Source of the DNA: a virus
Virus record (IMG/VR): IMGVR_UViG_3300024265_000030
Span: 1-64,000 of that record
Strand: one strand, 5' to 3'
Length of the DNA stretch: 64,000 bases
The position numbers and the translations under genes were made by a program. The first letter of the stretch is position 1; each line of letters opens with the position of its first letter. A model generated the notes under the pieces. It worked only from the letters and a program-made list of their open reading frames with translations, ran no database searches and was not told the origin of the DNA. Below, piece by piece: positions 752 to 50,865 of the stretch.

Positions 752-889
752 ATGCCAAAAATAACAGAAGTAAATATAATGTTTCCTACTGAGTAAGATG
801 TACACAGAAAGAGACGCGTAGGGGTATCTGTGAAATTTTCCTGTAGGGATAAGTGGGAGTTAGCAAAATACATATTAGAAAAGGAATAA
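752..889 (+). pseudogene. small ORF interrupted by an in-frame TAA
   Basis: An ATG at 752 opens 14 codons (MPKITEVNIMFPTE). A TAA at 794-796 follows, and then the same frame continues for 30 protein-like codons (including VGVSVKFSC and WELAKYILEKE) to a TAA at 887-889, 2 bases before thyX. As one protein it would be 45 residues with a central nonsense codon. It may be a disrupted gene, a readthrough case or a sequencing error. The 12-codon ORF at 715-750 just upstream has no visible meaning. Confidence 0.45.
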
Positions 890-891
890 TC

Positions 892-3000
892 ATGAAAGTA
901 ATTGAACCTAGTTATGAAATTATTAAGTATGATGGAGGCAGTGAGGAACAAGTCTTAAAGCACCTGGAGGCTTGTGGGAGAACTTGTTATAAATCAGATC
1001 ATAAGATTAGACAAGGATCAGCAGAGACATTTGTTAAAGGGTTAATGAAAGCAGGCCATGAGGCAATGATAGAGCATGCTTCTATAGCTACGGGAATGAG
1101 TACTAAAAACTATGAGTTTTTGAGAGATTATAGGTTATTTAATGGTACAACAAAACATATGAGCGATCCTGATATTGGTAAAGATAATGTTTTATCATTT
1201 AAAAAGGATTGGTATGCAAAGACTGCTCTTAATTTTATGAACTTTTCTTATCACGATAATATAGGGTTTCTTGTTTCTGGTAATTTCAGAGCTTGGAGAA
1301 ATCTACTTCATGGGTTTAAACTAGCGCCTGATTTATTATCTACTTTTGTAAGGTTTTTTCCTGTTATGTTTTCTGATTTTGATATTCCAAAAGGAAACTC
1401 AGGTAACAGAGAAGTAGTTGGTATTATGTCTGGTCTGGATAAAATGCTCCCAGCAGTAAAGTTGCTGCATAAGTATGTCTCTGTTCGTTTTATATGTAAT
1501 CGGGGTTTTTGTTATAGTGAAGATACTAAAGTGTTAACCAATGAAGGGTGGAAGTTTTTTCCTGAGTTAAAAGGAAATGAGATGATTTTAACTAAAGACG
1601 ATAACAATAATATTGTAGAAGAACCTATAAAAGAAATTGTTATAGAGGATTGGAATACAGACTTACTCAGTTTTAAAAATACCGAGATGGATTTGCGTGT
1701 TACGCCTAACCATAATATGTGGGTTCTTGATGCTGAGAGTGGTGGTTATAACTATGAAAAAGGAAAGTTTATTAAAGCCAAGGATATGACCAATTCTAAG
1801 TACAAGATAGATAGGGGCGGTAATTGGAAAGGACAGATAGTGGATAGAATAAATCTACCGGATGAGATTGAGTTTGTATCTTCTTTTAATAAAAAGAAAT
1901 GTAAAGGATTTTCAGTCAGCCCAGAGCCTTTTTTGGAGTTATTAGGGTTATGGGTTACGGATGGTACAATATATCCACCGAAAAATGGGAGGGGAAGAAG
2001 GGTATCCATACGACAGACTAAGCCTATAGCACATAGAAGAATAATAGAATTACTTGATAAATTGAATTTTAAATACTCAACACATAAAAATGATATTAGG
2101 ATAAATTGTATTCCTTTATGGCGGTTTTTAATGGATGAGTTTATGCTACCTATTAGTGGGATAAAGTCTTATTTTTTAACCCTTCCGGTTTGGCTTAGAA
2201 ATTTAGATAGTAACTTACTACAATGTTTTATTAAAGGAGTATTATTAGGAGATGGGTTTGAGGATAAAAGCAGAAAATTAGTATATTCTTCTTCTCTAAC
2301 CTTTTGTGAAAACTTAGTCGAGTTAGCTTTAAAAACAGGTAGGTCTGCCTCCATAAGGGAATATCGCCCTAAAGGACATAAAAGATATTGGTCGGATGGA
2401 AGAATAAGCATATGCCAAGCAAGTTATGTTGTTAATATAGGAAAAGAACCTTATGGGGTTTTAACTAAACATTCCGAAGTAGCTAAGATAGGAGAACCAG
2501 AAGCTTATCTTGGTCTGGTATGTTGTGTAGAATTAGAGAAACATCATAGATTATATGTTATGAGAAATGGAAAGGCTTGTTGGTCAGGAAATACACATGA
2601 ATTGGTACGTATGAGGCCATGTAGTTTTGCACAAGAATCAACCAGATACGTAGATTATTCTGATGAAAGTGATCGTGGTAAAGGTGAGATGAAAGCAGTT
2701 AAACCAGAATGGTTTACTCAAGAAGACCGGTTAGAGACGTGGATGATTGCTATGGAGCAGGCAGAAATTAAATATCAAGAATTACGTAAGCTAGGGGCTA
2801 GTCCTGGTGAAGCAAGAGGTGTTTTGCCAATCGATGTCAAGACAGAAATTGTCATTACTACTAACTTGGCTGAGTGGTATCATATATTTAAATTGAGAAC
2901 AGCAAATGCCGCACACCAGTCTATGCGACAGTTAATGCGACCGGTATGTGAAGAGTTTAAAGATGATGAACCGGAAATCTTTGAAGATATAACCTGGTAA
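892..3000 (+). CDS. thyX: flavin-dependent thymidylate synthase ThyX containing an intein
   Basis: ThyX methylates dUMP to dTMP using FAD, NADPH and methylene-tetrahydrofolate. I chose the ATG at 892 (AAGGA a few bases upstream) over an upstream in-frame GTG. The precursor is 702 residues: N-extein 1-206, intein 207-567, C-extein 568-702, giving a mature enzyme of about 341 residues, longer than the usual 220-260. The C-extein begins THELVRMRPCSFAQESTRY, the ThyX signature region, but the normal RHR triplet reads RMR, so the central histidine is replaced. The intein interrupts the protein one residue before THELV, in the most conserved part. Together with the dCMP deaminase at 27.6 kb it could supply phage dTTP. 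Confidence 0.93.
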   Translation: MKVIEPSYEIIKYDGGSEEQVLKHLEACGRTCYKSDHKIRQGSAETFVKGLMKAGHEAMIEHASIATGMSTKNYEFLRDYRLFNGTTKHMSDPDIGKDNVLSFKKDWYAKTALNFMNFSYHDNIGFLVSGNFRAWRNLLHGFKLAPDLLSTFVRFFPVMFSDFDIPKGNSGNREVVGIMSGLDKMLPAVKLLHKYVSVRFICNRGFCYSEDTKVLTNEGWKFFPELKGNEMILTKDDNNNIVEEPIKEIVIEDWNTDLLSFKNTEMDLRVTPNHNMWVLDAESGGYNYEKGKFIKAKDMTNSKYKIDRGGNWKGQIVDRINLPDEIEFVSSFNKKKCKGFSVSPEPFLELLGLWVTDGTIYPPKNGRGRRVSIRQTKPIAHRRIIELLDKLNFKYSTHKNDIRINCIPLWRFLMDEFMLPISGIKSYFLTLPVWLRNLDSNLLQCFIKGVLLGDGFEDKSRKLVYSSSLTFCENLVELALKTGRSASIREYRPKGHKRYWSDGRISICQASYVVNIGKEPYGVLTKHSEVAKIGEPEAYLGLVCCVELEKHHRLYVMRNGKACWSGNTHELVRMRPCSFAQESTRYVDYSDESDRGKGEMKAVKPEWFTQEDRLETWMIAMEQAEIKYQELRKLGASPGEARGVLPIDVKTEIVITTNLAEWYHIFKLRTANAAHQSMRQLMRPVCEEFKDDEPEIFEDITW
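1510..2592 (+). mobile_element. intein with LAGLIDADG homing endonuclease inside thyX
   Basis: This is an in-frame insertion of 361 residues. Block A is CYSEDTKVLTNEGW, block B is LRVTPNHNMWV, and the end is HHRLYVMRNGKACWSGN followed by Thr as the +1 residue. The penultimate residue is Gly rather than the usual His. Two LAGLIDADG helices are visible, LLGLWVTDG (around nt 1940) and FIKGVLLGDG (around nt 2230), so both the splicing and homing parts look intact. Inteins in phage ThyX and other nucleotide genes are well known. Confidence 0.92.
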
Positions 3001-8914: not shown

Positions 8915-9220
8915 ATGCTATTAAACGTAATGCAAATACCGGCACCGTATAATTTTGTAGTTCAGGTGAGATTTAAAGATCAGCCTATTTATGAATCTTA
9001 TTTTGCAAAACTGGTATCTTTAACTGATAAAAAAATAGCTAATAGGGTTGAGCTTATTGAAGGTGTACATCTGGAATCTGAAAATATGAGAGCAGAAAAG
9101 TTTAAGCGAATGCCCTTTGAAGTAGGGTACGATAATGTAATAGGCTTTTTAGTAATTAGAGTTGATGGTGAGATACTTGCTAGTGCAGGCGATATGAAGA
9201 AAGCAATCAGGAGTGAATAA
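8915..9220 (+). CDS. hypothetical protein
   Basis: This encodes 101 residues with mixed alpha/beta character and no cysteine motif. The ribosome site is weak. No family is recognised. Confidence 0.5.
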   Translation: MLLNVMQIPAPYNFVVQVRFKDQPIYESYFAKLVSLTDKKIANRVELIEGVHLESENMRAEKFKRMPFEVGYDNVIGFLVIRVDGEILASAGDMKKAIRSE

Positions 9221-9313
9221 ACGAATGATAATACTATTAGGTTAGTAATAAGGATGATTGTAGGTTTCTGTTTCTGGGTTCCAGCAACAATGATATTTTA
9301 AAGGACAAAATTA

Positions 9314-18068: not shown

Positions 18069-18358
18069 AAAATTATCTAGGCACTAAAGACGTATATAAG
18101 CTTTTACGCATTAGTAAATCAGCCATTAATAACTACGTAAAAACGGGCGTATTTAAAGCAAAAAAGAAAGATCCTTTTGGAAAATCGATTAGGGTTTATA
18201 CATGGGAAGATATACGGCAATTAGCTTTATTAAGGTACGGACCTATAGTTACTAAGGAATTTATAATCAAATGTCCTTACGGTACCTGTAAAAAGCCAAT
18301 GAAGGTCTCGCTATTATACTTAGCATATGAAGAATTAAAAAGTAAAAAGTATATTTAA
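18065..18358 (+). CDS. excisionase/MerR-like helix-turn-helix protein
   Basis: This encodes 97 residues: GTKDVYKLLRISKSAINNYVKTGVF is a MerR/Xis-type HTH, followed by a wing (FGKSIRVYTWEDIRQLALL) and a CPYGTC pair. It is probably a small DNA-binding regulator. The stop overlaps the next ATG. Confidence 0.65.
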   Translation: MKNYLGTKDVYKLLRISKSAINNYVKTGVFKAKKKDPFGKSIRVYTWEDIRQLALLRYGPIVTKEFIIKCPYGTCKKPMKVSLLYLAYEELKSKKYI

Positions 18359-18612
18359 TGGAGAGTAATATGGAAGATCTACAAAAACAGATTGAAGATT
18401 TAATTAATAGAAATTGTGCTGAAAATGAGAGTAATACACCTGATTTTATTTTAGCTGAGTATCTACTCGATTGTTTAAGAACATGGAATAATACAACGAA
18501 AAAAAGAGATAAGTGGTACTCAGTTAATTTAGAGCCTGGTAATAGTAGTTTTGCTTGCTGTACCGACTCTGATAAAGCAGTTAAAAATGCCCATCATGAA
18601 GAGGTACACTAA
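18358..18612 (+). CDS. conserved phage small protein (NTPDFILAEYLLDCL)
   Basis: This encodes 84 residues. The string NESNTPDFILAEYLLDCL is one I recognise from many phage and prophage proteins of unknown function. A second in-frame ATG (18370) follows GGAGAG and may be the true start. It is the last gene before the structured RNA region. Confidence 0.65.
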   Translation: MESNMEDLQKQIEDLINRNCAENESNTPDFILAEYLLDCLRTWNNTTKKRDKWYSVNLEPGNSSFACCTDSDKAVKNAHHEEVH

Positions 18613-19165
18613 AATATACACAAGGGCAACGATACTGACACCCTTGCAAGAAAACGGACAGTAGAGGAAAAACTTCTTCTGGTATCACGGCAGTCGAGAA
18701 GCCAAGTAAACAGAGAGGATAAAGGAGGTTAAACCCTCCTCCACGCGAGAGCCGCGTTAGGATCAACTGGTGGTTGCTGAGGGATTGCGCATAACCGATG
18801 TAATTGACTGCCACGTTTTATTATCTAGTAGAGCGGACGATATCCATCCTTACTAACGTAAGGAGACAGAGGCGAGTTCATAGAAATATGTTCCGGATTT
18901 TCTATGCTCTATAAAGATAGAGGCTTTTGTGGTTTAGCCTACTGTTCAATTAAACACTCCCTCTTCAGAAACGTGGGCTACGTTTTTGGCGGTTTTCAAG
19001 GTTTGTCTGTATCAAACCTTGGTTATGGAAAAAGGGAGATTTGTAACTTCCTACTATGATGGCTGAGGGTGTCTTGCTGCCGGTGAGGAGTTCTGCAGAA
19101 TTTCAAGACACGGATGGATCTACTGGGAAACCGGGGAGAATGCGGCCCGATGCCATGTCTTTATT
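18613..19165 (+). ncRNA. long structured RNA candidate (about 550 nt)
   Basis: No protein frame spans this stretch, but it is full of perfect inverted repeats: CAAGGG/CCCTTG (18621/18641), GGCAGTC/GACTGCC (18689/18806), GGAGG/CCTCC (18724/18735), CCTTAC/GTAAGG (18848/18858), CATAGAAA/TTTCTATG (18879/18899), CTCTAT/ATAGAG (18907/18917), CTCCCT/AGGGAG (18957/19033) enclosing CAAGGTTTG/CAAACCTTG (18997/19013), and GTGTCTTG/CAAGACAC (19069/19104). It is more G+C-rich than the flanking genes. Size and phage setting resemble the ROOL or GOLLD classes, but I cannot match a consensus by eye, and I see no group I or II intron core. Confidence 0.7.
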
Positions 19166-19174
19166 TATGTTATT

Positions 19175-19417
19175 ATGATTATAAATAAGAAACGTATCTT
19201 TTGGATCTTAATATGTGGTTTGTGGGTATTTAATATTTATATGCTCTTTTTTAGAAGAACACAGCCGCAAGAACACGTTATTAAGTTTACCAATATTGAG
19301 GATTTACGAAAAGAAGATCCTGAGGATCCTCGCATAAAAGAATTTGAAGAAATAATTGAAGAATGGAGGCCAATAATTGAATTGAATATTAGAGCATGGA
19401 TTAAATCAAATGAATGA
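19175..19417 (+). CDS. small single-pass membrane protein
   Basis: This encodes 80 residues. The N-terminal anchor (IFWILICGLWVFNIYMLFF) is followed by an acidic helical domain. It sits between two structured RNA candidates. No strong ribosome site is seen. A 17-codon frame follows at 19427 that I do not call. Confidence 0.5.
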   Translation: MIINKKRIFWILICGLWVFNIYMLFFRRTQPQEHVIKFTNIEDLRKEDPEDPRIKEFEEIIEEWRPIIELNIRAWIKSNE

Positions 19418-19651: not shown

Positions 19652-19674
19652 ATAGAACAACGAGGAATAACATA

Positions 19675-20040
19675 ACATTTTTACCCAGTCGTTATAGACG
19701 TAGGTTCAAACCAAACTGGGTAAATAAAAGCTGTGACTGAATAACTGATGTAGTGTGAGTAAGGTATATACCACCCTGAGGAAATGCAGGGTAAAAAGCT
19801 TACTTAGCTTGGTATGGTAGTTCTCTGTGGAAATTAAGGTATTCTCTTTTATAAATGGACCAATTTATAAAAGAGAAGTCGGCACGTATGGATATACTCT
19901 ACTCTACCGTGTCCGTGGGGGTAAAGCCCTTCTCCATTTATTTCTGGGACGTACGCGACTTCCAGAAGGATGACTGAAAATTTAACTGCAGACTTAACTT
20001 GTAGGTAAAATGACAATCCTATCGGCTTTTTATTCTAAAG
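19675..20040 (+). ncRNA. second structured RNA candidate (about 360 nt)
   Basis: There is no protein frame. Inverted repeats: TTTACCCAGT/ACTGGGTAAA (19680/19715), enclosing a T-loop-like GGTTCAAACC; AGTAAG/CTTACT (19758/19799) around ACCCTG/CAGGGT (19773/19787); a 14-bp perfect hairpin with loop GGACCA at 19843-19876; and GGCACG with CGTGTC (19881/19908, one wobble). It ends in GGCTTTTTATT near 20025-20035, a possible terminator. It lies between the acidic peptide and the DUF433 gene. Confidence 0.65.
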
Positions 20041-20053
20041 GACAACACTAAAA

Positions 20054-20308: not shown

Positions 20309-20587
20309 ATGTCAGAAAACACAAACATTTATGTCGGGAATATCCCTTATTCCGCAGACGAAGGATCGTTGAGGGAGCTATTCGTTAAACACGGAGAGGT
20401 AGAATCTGTGAAGGTAATAACTGACAGAGATTCTGGTAAATCTAAAGGATTTGCCTTTATTAACATGATGGATGAAGAAGGAACTCAATCTGCAATTAGT
20501 AATCTACACGAATCTGATATGGACGGTAGAAAATTGGTTGTAAATATTGCCAGGCCCCGTAAACAGCAGGAAAATAGAAGCTATTAG
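20309..20587 (+). CDS. RRM-type RNA-binding protein
   Basis: This encodes 92 residues, a single complete RNA recognition motif. RNP2 is IYVGNI and RNP1 is KGFAFINM, with the usual betaalphabeta-betaalphabeta spacing (SLRELFVKHGEVESVKVI; ESDMDGRKLVVNIARP). A basic, Gln-rich tail follows. Bacterial RRM proteins are short and bind single-stranded RNA. This one sits among three structured RNA candidates, so binding those RNAs is a natural hypothesis. Confidence 0.93.
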   Translation: MSENTNIYVGNIPYSADEGSLRELFVKHGEVESVKVITDRDSGKSKGFAFINMMDEEGTQSAISNLHESDMDGRKLVVNIARPRKQQENRSY

Positions 20588-20798
20588 AGGCGGCATTTAT
20601 CTTTAGGTAAAGAGCTTAAACCCAGCTATAAGAAATTACTCACACACAAATTTATCAAGGATATATCAAGACAGTATTACCATGTTTGCAAACATAGGTA
20701 TGTACCCGGGACTATCAGATACAGCATCTGTAAGAGTAACTGTATATGATAGTTCCGGCTGTGTTGATATGTATCTCTACATTGAGCCTACTGAATAA
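20588..20798 (+). pseudogene. decayed copy of the gene at 21122
   Basis: The stretch parallels the gene at 21122 almost codon for codon (RRHLSLGKELKPSYKKLL ... ISRQYYHVCKHRY; later YDSSGCVDMYLYIEP in another frame). It lacks a start codon and carries an internal deletion that shifts the frame near 20725. It directly follows the RRM stop. It is a tandem-duplication remnant split by the RNA at 20796 and the gene at 20938. Confidence 0.8.
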
Positions 20799-20910
20799 TT
20801 ATACTGTGGGCTTCCCCTGGCCACTGACAATGGAAGCATCTGTACGGGCAGCCATGAAGTTTCCCCAGCCCGTGAATAACCGGATATCAGGGTGGCTTAC
20901 TATATAATTA
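20796..20910 (+). ncRNA. third, small structured RNA candidate (about 115 nt)
   Basis: The outer stem is TAATTATA/TATAATTA (20796/20903). Inside are GCTTCC/GGAAGC (20810/20832) and ACGGGC/GCCCGT (20844/20869). It is G+C-rich against AT-rich surroundings and has no protein frame. It could be a small RNA, a cis-regulatory leader of the gene at 20938, or a relic of the pseudogene's 3' flank. Confidence 0.5.
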
Positions 20911-20937
20911 TTTAGGACAGAAGTGAGGATTTATTTT

Positions 20938-21129
20938 ATGAGTTGTGACCATCACATAGAAAAGAGAAATTTTATATGTATTAGGGATTCTGCTATTGTT
21001 TATAAATGTAGCTGTGGTATGTATGTTTTTAATTCTACTCCAGAGGGAGTAGTAGCTGAGGATAGTGACCGTATGACAGATACTTTGCGGAATGTGCTGC
21101 AGGCAGTAAAAGGTATGTTTGGTGGGTAG
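20938..21129 (+). CDS. small His/Cys metal-binding protein
   Basis: This encodes 63 residues from the ATG at 20938 (GAGGA eight bases upstream); a GTG at 20923 is the alternative. CDHHIEKRNFIC and KCSCGMY give four cysteines and two histidines, probably one zinc site. It overlaps the following gene. Confidence 0.55.
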   Translation: MSCDHHIEKRNFICIRDSAIVYKCSCGMYVFNSTPEGVVAEDSDRMTDTLRNVLQAVKGMFGG

Positions 21130-21397
21130 ACATTTATCTTTAAGTAAAGAACTGAAACCTGGCTATAAGAAACTTCTCAAGCATAAATTTGTTAAGAACA
21201 TATCCAGACAATACTACAGTGTTTGTAAACATAGATATAAATCAGGCACTATTCGTTATAAAGCGGATACATTTTCCGGGATTCGGGTAACCGGTTATGA
21301 TAGTTCCGGTTGTGTTGGTATGTATATCTACATTGAGCCTAAAGATAAAATTGAAGATGTAAAAAGATTTATAGAAAAAGAATGGAGGGTAGTATGA
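21122..21397 (+). CDS. hypothetical basic protein (parent of the pseudogene at 20588)
   Basis: This encodes 91 residues from the GTG at 21122 (or TTG at 21119). Basic N-terminus (RHLSLSKELKPGYKKLLKHKF), a beta-rich middle, and GYDSSGCVGMYIYIEP. A near-identical but broken copy lies 530 bases upstream. Function unknown. Confidence 0.6.
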   Translation: MGRHLSLSKELKPGYKKLLKHKFVKNISRQYYSVCKHRYKSGTIRYKADTFSGIRVTGYDSSGCVGMYIYIEPKDKIEDVKRFIEKEWRVV

Positions 21398-22065: not shown

Positions 22066-22149
22066 GCCAGAATGGTGGAATAGACAGATACGCTTATCTC
22101 AAAAGCAGACGGGGGTAAACTCATGCCGGTTCGAGACCGGCTCCGGGCA
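22066..22149 (+). tRNA. degenerate tRNA-Leu (CAA)
   Basis: It lines up with bacterial tRNA-Leu along its length: D-arm TGGTGGAATAGACAGATACG, loop CTCAAAA with anticodon CAA, a long variable arm, and a perfect T-arm (GCCGG TTCGAGA CCGGC, 22125-22141). The acceptor stem (22066-22072 with 22142-22148) has two mismatches and the anticodon stem is mostly unpaired or wobble. No CCA is encoded. It may be a decayed or highly diverged tRNA. Confidence 0.65.
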
Positions 22150-49024: not shown

Positions 49025-49148
49025 GTTATGCTCCTTTTAAAAATGTATATGTTAATTATGATGAAAACATAGCGTCACCATAATAATAACCAAAGTCGTA
49101 ATTGCTTACAAACAACTGAAGTATTGTTGTAATAATTGCTGCACTTTA

Positions 49149-49613: not shown

Positions 49614-49865
49614 ACGCTAAGGGAAAAGCCGGTCAGCCGCCCCCACACCCCTGTCCTTCTGATCCCGCTATACCCTTACACTTTTTTTAGTGTTCAGCTG
49701 TAGATTAACCAATAGCTCAACCATAGTTCAGCCTACACCCTCCCTACCTTAGCATAAAAGGTAGAGAGGGAGATAAGCTTAGAGGAGGGAAGTATATTAA
49801 CCGTTACTGTTATACTAACAGTAAGGTCATCTGTTATATAGTATATGTATTTTACCTGCGCTTTA

Positions 49866-50106
49866 TGTACTATAGCTGACTTCCGCCGGTTTGTCTCAAA
49901 CTGTAGCTCTACCGGCTATCAGCAGAAAATGATTCAACACGTCATTCTGCCGACTATCGGCAGTTTGCTGTGACACGTCATTTAGCCGCACTTTATGTAC
50001 TATAGCTGACTTCCGCCGGTTTGTCTCATCCTTACGTCAATAACGTAAGGATGATTCAACACGTCATTCTGCCGACTATCGGCAGAATGATATGACACGT
50101 CATTAT
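49866..50106 (-). promoter_or_regulatory. repeated element copies 4 and 5 with hairpin modules
   Basis: Copies at 49866-49898 and 49996-50028 (TGTACTATAGCTGACTTCCG, then CCGGTTTGTCTCA). Each is followed by a hairpin (CTGCCGACTATCGGCAG at 49947-49963 and 50069-50085) and an ACACGTCATT word. A second hairpin CCTTACG/CGTAAGG lies in unit 5. Leftward reading suggests tandem promoter-operator cassettes. Confidence 0.65.
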
Positions 50107-50246
50107 GGTCACTTCTAACATAAGCGTAAATAGAGTAAAACACACCTATTTATCCTGTATTTTGCTCTATTTATGCTTATAAGATGCTATTTAGCATACA
50201 CTTAGCTACTATACTCTAATAATAACAGCTTTAAGTCTATACTACG

Positions 50247-50423
50247 TTATAGAAAGATATCTATCTCTCTAATATCGTCCAGTATAATAGTATGTTTGTA
50301 CCGTGGATGTATATAGCCTTTTTTCTTGTAATACCTCTTAAGTATCATTAACCTATCGGCCTGGATTATACCAATAGTCTCTTTACCCTTATTCTTAACC
50401 TCTATTATTTTGGTTAAAACCAT
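50247..50423 (-). CDS. small basic protein within the control region
   Basis: This encodes 58 residues from the ATG at 50423 behind AGGAGG. It is basic with alternating hydrophobics (IGIIQADRLMILKRYYKKKG). It lies between repeated element clusters, so it could be a regulator of them. Confidence 0.55.
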   Translation of the reverse strand: MVLTKIIEVKNKGKETIGIIQADRLMILKRYYKKKGYIHPRYKHTIILDDIREIDIFL

Positions 50424-50472
50424 TATACCTCCTGTTGTATTATCAGCAGTTATGATAAATAACCGCACTTTA

Positions 50473-50627
50473 TGTACTATAGCTGACCTCCGCCAATTTG
50501 TCTCATCTTTACGTTAATAACGTAATAATGCTATGGTACGTCATTCTGCCGACTATCGGCAGAATGATATGACACGTCATTTAGCCGCACTTTATGTACT
50601 ATAGCTGACCTCCGCCAATTTGTCTCA
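50473..50627 (-). promoter_or_regulatory. repeated element copies 6 and 7 with hairpin module
   Basis: Copies at 50473-50505 and 50595-50627 (TGTACTATAGCTGACCTCCG, then CCAATTTGTCTCA), slightly diverged from copies 4-5. Between them is CTGCCGACTATCGGCAG (50546-50562) and the ACACGTCATT word. Confidence 0.65.
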
Positions 50628-50865
50628 AACTGTAGTTCTGCCGATAAGTATATATAGTCATATCTTCATTTTGTATCGGTAATAATAGTTCGGTAATAAC
50701 CTTATAGCCTTATAGTGCTATTATACGAAAACGCCCCGTCTTCTTGCGTCCTACGTCCAGACCTCTCCCAGGTTGAGAAGGCTTTGATATATGTCAATAG
50801 TACGGCAACTATAAGATGTCAGATTCTATTTAAGACCTATGCGGATAACCGATAACTACTTTATA
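50628..50865. other. non-coding stretch after element copy 7
   Basis: There is no credible gene. It holds CCGATA and TATCGGT about 30 bases apart, and a leftward TTGACATATATCAA-like sequence. I cannot assign a role. Confidence 0.4.

What the first reader, a model, noticed from the sequence alone, without database searches (positions are those of the whole stretch)
18613..19165. 550-nt structured RNA with at least nine perfect stems
Stems of 5 to 9 bp nest and branch (for example GGCAGTC/GACTGCC encloses a G-rich hairpin; AGGGAG closes a 3-way region). Size, G+C contrast and position after a phage gene block are those of ornate large RNAs. It has no intron core or tmRNA features that I could find.
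Basis: partly seen in the sequence, partly recalled or inferred. Interest (0 to 1): 0.85.

Follow-up and report, generated by a model that had tools for sequence, protein, structure and literature searches.

The report
Orphan structured noncoding RNA candidate, phage
A 180-kb phage genome fragment carries an unusually G+C-rich, non-coding 550-base stretch, on the coding strand of a tightly packed gene block, that probably makes a folded RNA of a kind not in the RNA catalogues; no relative was found, so neither the fold nor a function could be confirmed.

Summary
The stretch is real and non-coding. It lies in a densely packed rightward phage gene block, has no coding signal or protein-family match in any frame, and is the most G+C-rich low-coding segment of the 180-kb record (43% against 35%). 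Beyond chance are three local hairpins of 8-9 bp (0.27 expected) and a three-way junction at 18955-19040 (z -4.3, picked after the fact). The whole folds only moderately better than shuffles (z -1.8 to -2.7), and the reverse strand does as well (z -3.0). Rfam gives no match, even at E up to 10: no GOLLD, ROOL, OLE, HEARO, intron, RNase P or tmRNA. No relative was found in IMG/VR, GTDB genomes (by sparse patterns only), phages or plasmids, so covariation, the decisive test, could not be done. Best reading: an orphan structured RNA segment of a polycistronic transcript, possibly a large phage ncRNA outside known classes. A second ORF-free block (19652-20053) and an Rbp-type RRM gene, rare in phages, lie just downstream. 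Function is inference only.

The parts
18613..19165 (+). RNA1: ORF-free, G+C-rich intergenic segment, candidate structured non-coding RNA
18955..19040 (+). three-way junction: 6-bp closing stem CTCCCT/AGGGAG, hairpins 18969-18985 and 18997-19021
   Evidence: -30.8 kcal/mol, z -4.3, 0 of 300 shuffles as stable when folded alone; but closing stem has pairing probability 0.04 and the 9-bp hairpin 0.23 in the full-length ensemble
18689..18812 (+). domain closed by GGCAGTC/GACTGCC with G-rich hairpin AGGAGG/CCTCCT inside
   Evidence: stem pairing probability 0.91; domain 18676-18822 as a whole not better than shuffles, z -0.5
18847..18922 (+). three successive hairpins TCCTTAC/GTAAGGA, CATAGAAA/TTTCTATG, CTCTAT/ATAGAG
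   Evidence: pairing probabilities 0.98, 0.97, 0.64
19069..19111 (+). hairpin GTGTCTTG/CAAGACAC
   Evidence: 8 bp, probability 0.75; competes with a long-range pairing to 18637-18647 in the MFE structure
18358..18612 (+). upstream gene, 84 aa (PHROG 31227, unknown function; likely true start 18370)
19175..19417 (+). downstream small ORF, 80 aa, N-terminal hydrophobic stretch, no Shine-Dalgarno visible
19652..20053 (+). RNA2: second ORF-free segment, with 15-bp perfect hairpin 19842-19877 and 10-bp stem 19680-19724
   Evidence: fold z -2.1, repeats, no Rfam match, no relative in phages
20309..20587 (+). RRM protein, NCBIfam Rbp_regulator (above curated cut-off), possible RNA-binding partner
   Evidence: only 3 of 50,697 phage records have a similar protein

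Best explanation
RNA1 is a structured, untranslated segment of a rightward polycistronic phage transcript. It probably persists as a folded RNA (at least the hairpin row 18847-18922 and the three-way junction 18955-19040) and acts as RNA, either freed by nuclease processing as a stable trans-acting phage RNA or in place on the operon mRNA. The neighbouring Rbp-type RRM protein is the most plausible protein partner. Shown: it is non-coding by every test run, has elevated G+C, contains more long local hairpins than chance gives, and matches no Rfam family. Inferred: transcription, processing, the overall fold, any partner and any function.
For: Flanking genes overlap or nearly touch while this gap is 562 nt. 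Coding score is about 0 in all six frames while the credible neighbouring genes score 0.11-0.41. No Pfam or PHROG family in any frame. Highest G+C of all low-coding segments in the record and among the top 0.4% of 500-nt windows, a known mark of structured RNAs in A+T-rich genomes. More stable than all 43 sampled 553-nt windows of the genome (partly a G+C effect). Global MFE below all 100 shuffles; hairpins of at least 8 bp enriched; three-way junction z -4.3. RRM gene, rare in phages, 1.1 kb downstream.
Against: No relatives, so no covariation. The fold z-score is modest, and the reverse strand does equally well. Ensemble entropy is not below that of shuffles. No promoter above chance and no own terminator.
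Confidence: 0.55

Rival explanations
1. Cis-acting leader: RNA1 is a long 5' untranslated region that controls the ORF at 19175 (and perhaps 19493), which starts 10 nt after it and has no visible Shine-Dalgarno sequence, so that folding or protein binding would set its translation.
For: Position directly upstream; no SD before ATG 19175 while 19493, 20054 and 20309 have one; the ORF has a normal coding score.
Against: 553 nt is long for a leader; no promoter above chance before it; the controlled protein is unknown and has no relatives.
Confidence: 0.15
2. No RNA function: remnant of a decayed or foreign segment, or DNA without function, whose hairpins are mostly what a 43% G+C sequence gives.
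For: Modest z-scores equal on both strands; stem number near chance; a decayed gene copy does exist nearby at 20588-20800; no conservation found.
Against: No coding remnant in any frame; phage genomes rarely keep 550 nt of dead sequence; a three-way junction with z -4.3.
Confidence: 0.2
3. DNA-level element (replication origin, packaging or recombination site) whose inverted repeats act as cruciforms or protein-binding sites.
For: Equal folding of both strands.
Against: No tandem repeats or iterons in RNA1; it lies inside a co-directional gene block, not at a strand switch.
Confidence: 0.08
4. Group I or group II intron, or other known ribozyme, too diverged for Rfam.
For: Size and stem content.
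Against: No Rfam intron match at E up to 10 with lax filters; the flanking ORF 18358-18612 appears complete against its PHROG and no split gene is seen; no intron ORF.
Confidence: 0.02

Closest known systems
ROOL RNA (Rfam)
   Same: About the same size (size from my own knowledge); encoded by phages and prophages; function unknown (PMC12286853).
   Different: No Rfam match at any threshold tried; no tRNA island; no covariation data; multimer formation untested.
GOLLD RNA (Rfam)
   Same: Large phage-encoded non-coding RNA.
   Different: GOLLD is often over 800 nt with a conserved 3' region (PMC12286853); no match here.
OLE RNA (Rfam)
   Same: About 600 nt; works with dedicated proteins (PMC9723947).
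   Different: Found in Gram-positive extremophilic or anaerobic bacteria; no sequence or structure match here; no OLE-associated protein was sought.
HEARO / omega RNA of IscB-type systems
   Same: Structured RNA of mobile elements.
   Different: No match, and no IscB or TnpB-like match among the adjacent genes scanned.

Membership tests
ROOL | match to the Rfam covariance model | tested here: not met
   no match at gathering threshold or at E up to 10
ROOL | frequent proximity to tRNA islands (not strictly defining) | tested here: not met
   ARAGORN finds no tRNA in the 180-kb record; one degenerate tRNA-like stretch at 22066-22149 below threshold
ROOL | homo-oligomeric nanocage | not testable with these tools
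   needs cryo-EM or mass photometry
GOLLD | match to the Rfam covariance model | tested here: not met
OLE | match to the Rfam covariance model | tested here: not met
Group I / group II intron | intron core (Rfam) and an interrupted gene | tested here: not met
   no match; flanking ORFs complete
tmRNA / RNase P / tRNA | Rfam or ARAGORN match in 18613-19165 | tested here: not met
structured non-coding RNA (any) | covarying base pairs among relatives | tested here: inconclusive
   no relative found in phages, plasmids, IMG/VR or GTDB scans, so it could not be scored
structured non-coding RNA (any) | non-coding | tested here: met
structured non-coding RNA (any) | folding energy below matched shuffles | tested here: inconclusive
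   z -2.7 and -1.8; reverse strand -3.0; three-way junction -4.3

The most novel reading that the evidence does not exclude
RNA1, perhaps with RNA2 about 490 nt downstream, is a new class of large phage-encoded ornate RNA that works as a ribonucleoprotein with the phage's own Rbp-type RRM protein.
Probability: 0.15. Interest if true: 0.75.

Novelty: new variant of a known kind. Interest (0 to 1): 0.38.

Why it matters
Large phage RNAs such as GOLLD and ROOL have known shapes but no known function. Another such class with a plausible protein partner encoded beside it would give a direct handle on what these RNAs do. As it stands it is a candidate: one sequence, no relatives, moderate structure.

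Tried and rejected
Rfam at gathering and at E up to 10: only low-complexity chance matches. Distant blastn in phages and plasmids for RNA1, and in phages for RNA2: none. IMG/VR scans with the adjacent HTH gene, the RecD-like helicase, terminase and DNA polymerase: only one near-identical contig (IMGVR_UViG_3300009788_000095), which starts at window position 20925 and so lacks the RNA; the helicase relatives share no synteny and no RNA1 match. Exact 16- and 17-mer scans of IMG/VR: seven chance hits, none extending. RNA1 read through as pseudo-peptides to allow degenerate pattern scans of IMG/VR and GTDB genomes: no relative; these scans can only find close relatives and RNA-type divergence would be missed. 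Decayed-gene hypothesis: six frames against Pfam and PHROGs with X at stops, codon-usage score: no support. Moorella phage MTATph1 was looked at as a possible kin by gene content but is too distant. RNA1-RNA2 pairing: not better than shuffles (8 of 40 as good). The 49-51 kb ORF-poor region was examined as a possible second RNA locus: it is a repeat array, not similar.

Full report
What is there. The stretch 18613-19165 lies between the stop codon of an 84-aa gene (PHROG 31227) and the start of an 80-aa ORF, in a rightward gene block of a 180,316-base IMG/VR record. The neighbouring genes overlap or nearly touch; this gap is 562 nt. The record carries terminase, portal, major head protein, DNA polymerase, DnaB-like helicase and UvsX-like genes. 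Its nearest cultured relatives are remote: terminase about 30% to Bacillus phage Slash and Microcystis phage MaeS, DNA polymerase below 30%.

Non-coding. No frame holds an ORF over 77 aa. A codon score trained on the phage's own genes is about zero or negative in all six frames for the whole stretch, while the credible neighbouring genes score 0.11 to 0.41 in their own frames. All six frames, with X at stops, match nothing in Pfam or PHROGs beyond chance. G+C is 43%, the highest of any low-coding segment in the record, whose mean is 35%.

Structure. Their number is close to chance: 14 perfect stems of at least 6 bp within 130 nt against 11.1 +/- 3.0 in dinucleotide shuffles. Local hairpins of at least 8 bp are enriched, three against 0.27, none of 60 shuffles reaching three. 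Folding energy of the whole is -171.4 kcal/mol, z -2.7 with no shuffle of 100 as stable, but z -1.8 in an independent run of 40 shuffles, and the reverse strand gives -3.0. The ensemble is not better defined than that of shuffles. By domain, the three-way junction at 18955-19040 stands out (z -4.3, 0 of 300) and the 5' end 18613-18690 to a lesser degree (z -3.2), whereas the domain closed by GGCAGTC/GACTGCC (z -0.5) and the 3' domain (z -0.6) do not; these domains were picked after looking, so their z-scores are optimistic. In the full-length ensemble the junction's closing stem has probability 0.04, so the global model is not trustworthy.

Known families. Rfam 15 gives nothing at gathering threshold for the window, and for this region at E up to 10 only snoRNA- and microRNA-type chance matches, mostly in a GATGATGA repeat of the neighbouring ORF. 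GOLLD, ROOL, OLE, HEARO, introns, RNase P and tmRNA are therefore not matched. No gene is split, which speaks against an intron.

Relatives. None was found. Blastn with 11-base words finds nothing in 50,697 phage or 72,556 plasmid records. IMG/VR and GTDB scans by exact patterns and by degenerate pseudo-peptides found only chance hits; these scans see close relatives only. One IMG/VR contig is near-identical to the record but starts at position 20925, after the RNA. Without relatives covariation cannot be scored, and neither a conserved fold nor its absence is shown.

Surroundings. A second ORF-free block, 19652-20053, has a 15-bp perfect hairpin and moderately low folding energy (z -2.1) and likewise no relatives. 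Some 255 nt downstream of it is a single-RRM protein that passes the curated cut-off of NCBIfam Rbp_regulator; similar proteins occur in only 3 of 50,697 phage records. Rbp-type RRM proteins are global RNA binders in Bacteroides (title of PMC11697453), so a phage ribonucleoprotein is a reasonable guess and no more. The ORF at 19175 directly after RNA1 lacks a visible Shine-Dalgarno sequence, which leaves room for a cis-acting role.

Verdict. The most probable reading is a structured untranslated RNA segment of the operon transcript, outside the catalogued families; 0.55. A cis leader (0.15), non-functional sequence (0.2) and a DNA element (0.08) remain possible. The claim 'ornate large RNA' is not excluded and not shown.

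Noticed in passing
window 19652-20053: Second ORF-free, moderately structured block with a 15-bp perfect hairpin (TTCTCTTTTATAAAT/ATTTATAAAAGAGAA) and a TTTACCCAGT/ACTGGGTAAA stem enclosing a T-arm-like GGTTCAAACC.
   Followed up: partly
window 20309-20587: Phage-encoded RRM protein at the NCBIfam Rbp_regulator cut-off; similar proteins in only 3 of 50,697 phage records.
   Followed up: partly
window 22066-22149: Degenerate class II tRNA-like (Leu-like) sequence missed by ARAGORN, Rfam tRNA 19.3 bits (below gathering), at the point where gene direction switches; possible tRNA remnant or attachment site.
   Followed up: partly
window 20588-20800 and 21119-21397: Decayed duplicate of the gene at 21119-21397 lies just after the RRM gene.
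   Followed up: no
window 49851-50640, with single copies at 49139, 44083 and 37447: Repeat unit of about 125 bp containing CTTTATGTACTATAGCTGACTTCCGCC..TTTGTCTCA, in an ORF-poor region; folds far better than shuffles (150-nt window at 49951, z -7.5).
   Followed up: no
L007 around 9150-9240 (record 73150-73240): Two near-perfect palindromes of about 30 bp sharing TACTGGACAA..TTGTCCAGTA in a long gap between genes.
   Followed up: no
window 853-3000: ThyX-like thymidylate synthase that appears to carry an intein (read by eye from the ORF, not tested).
   Followed up: no
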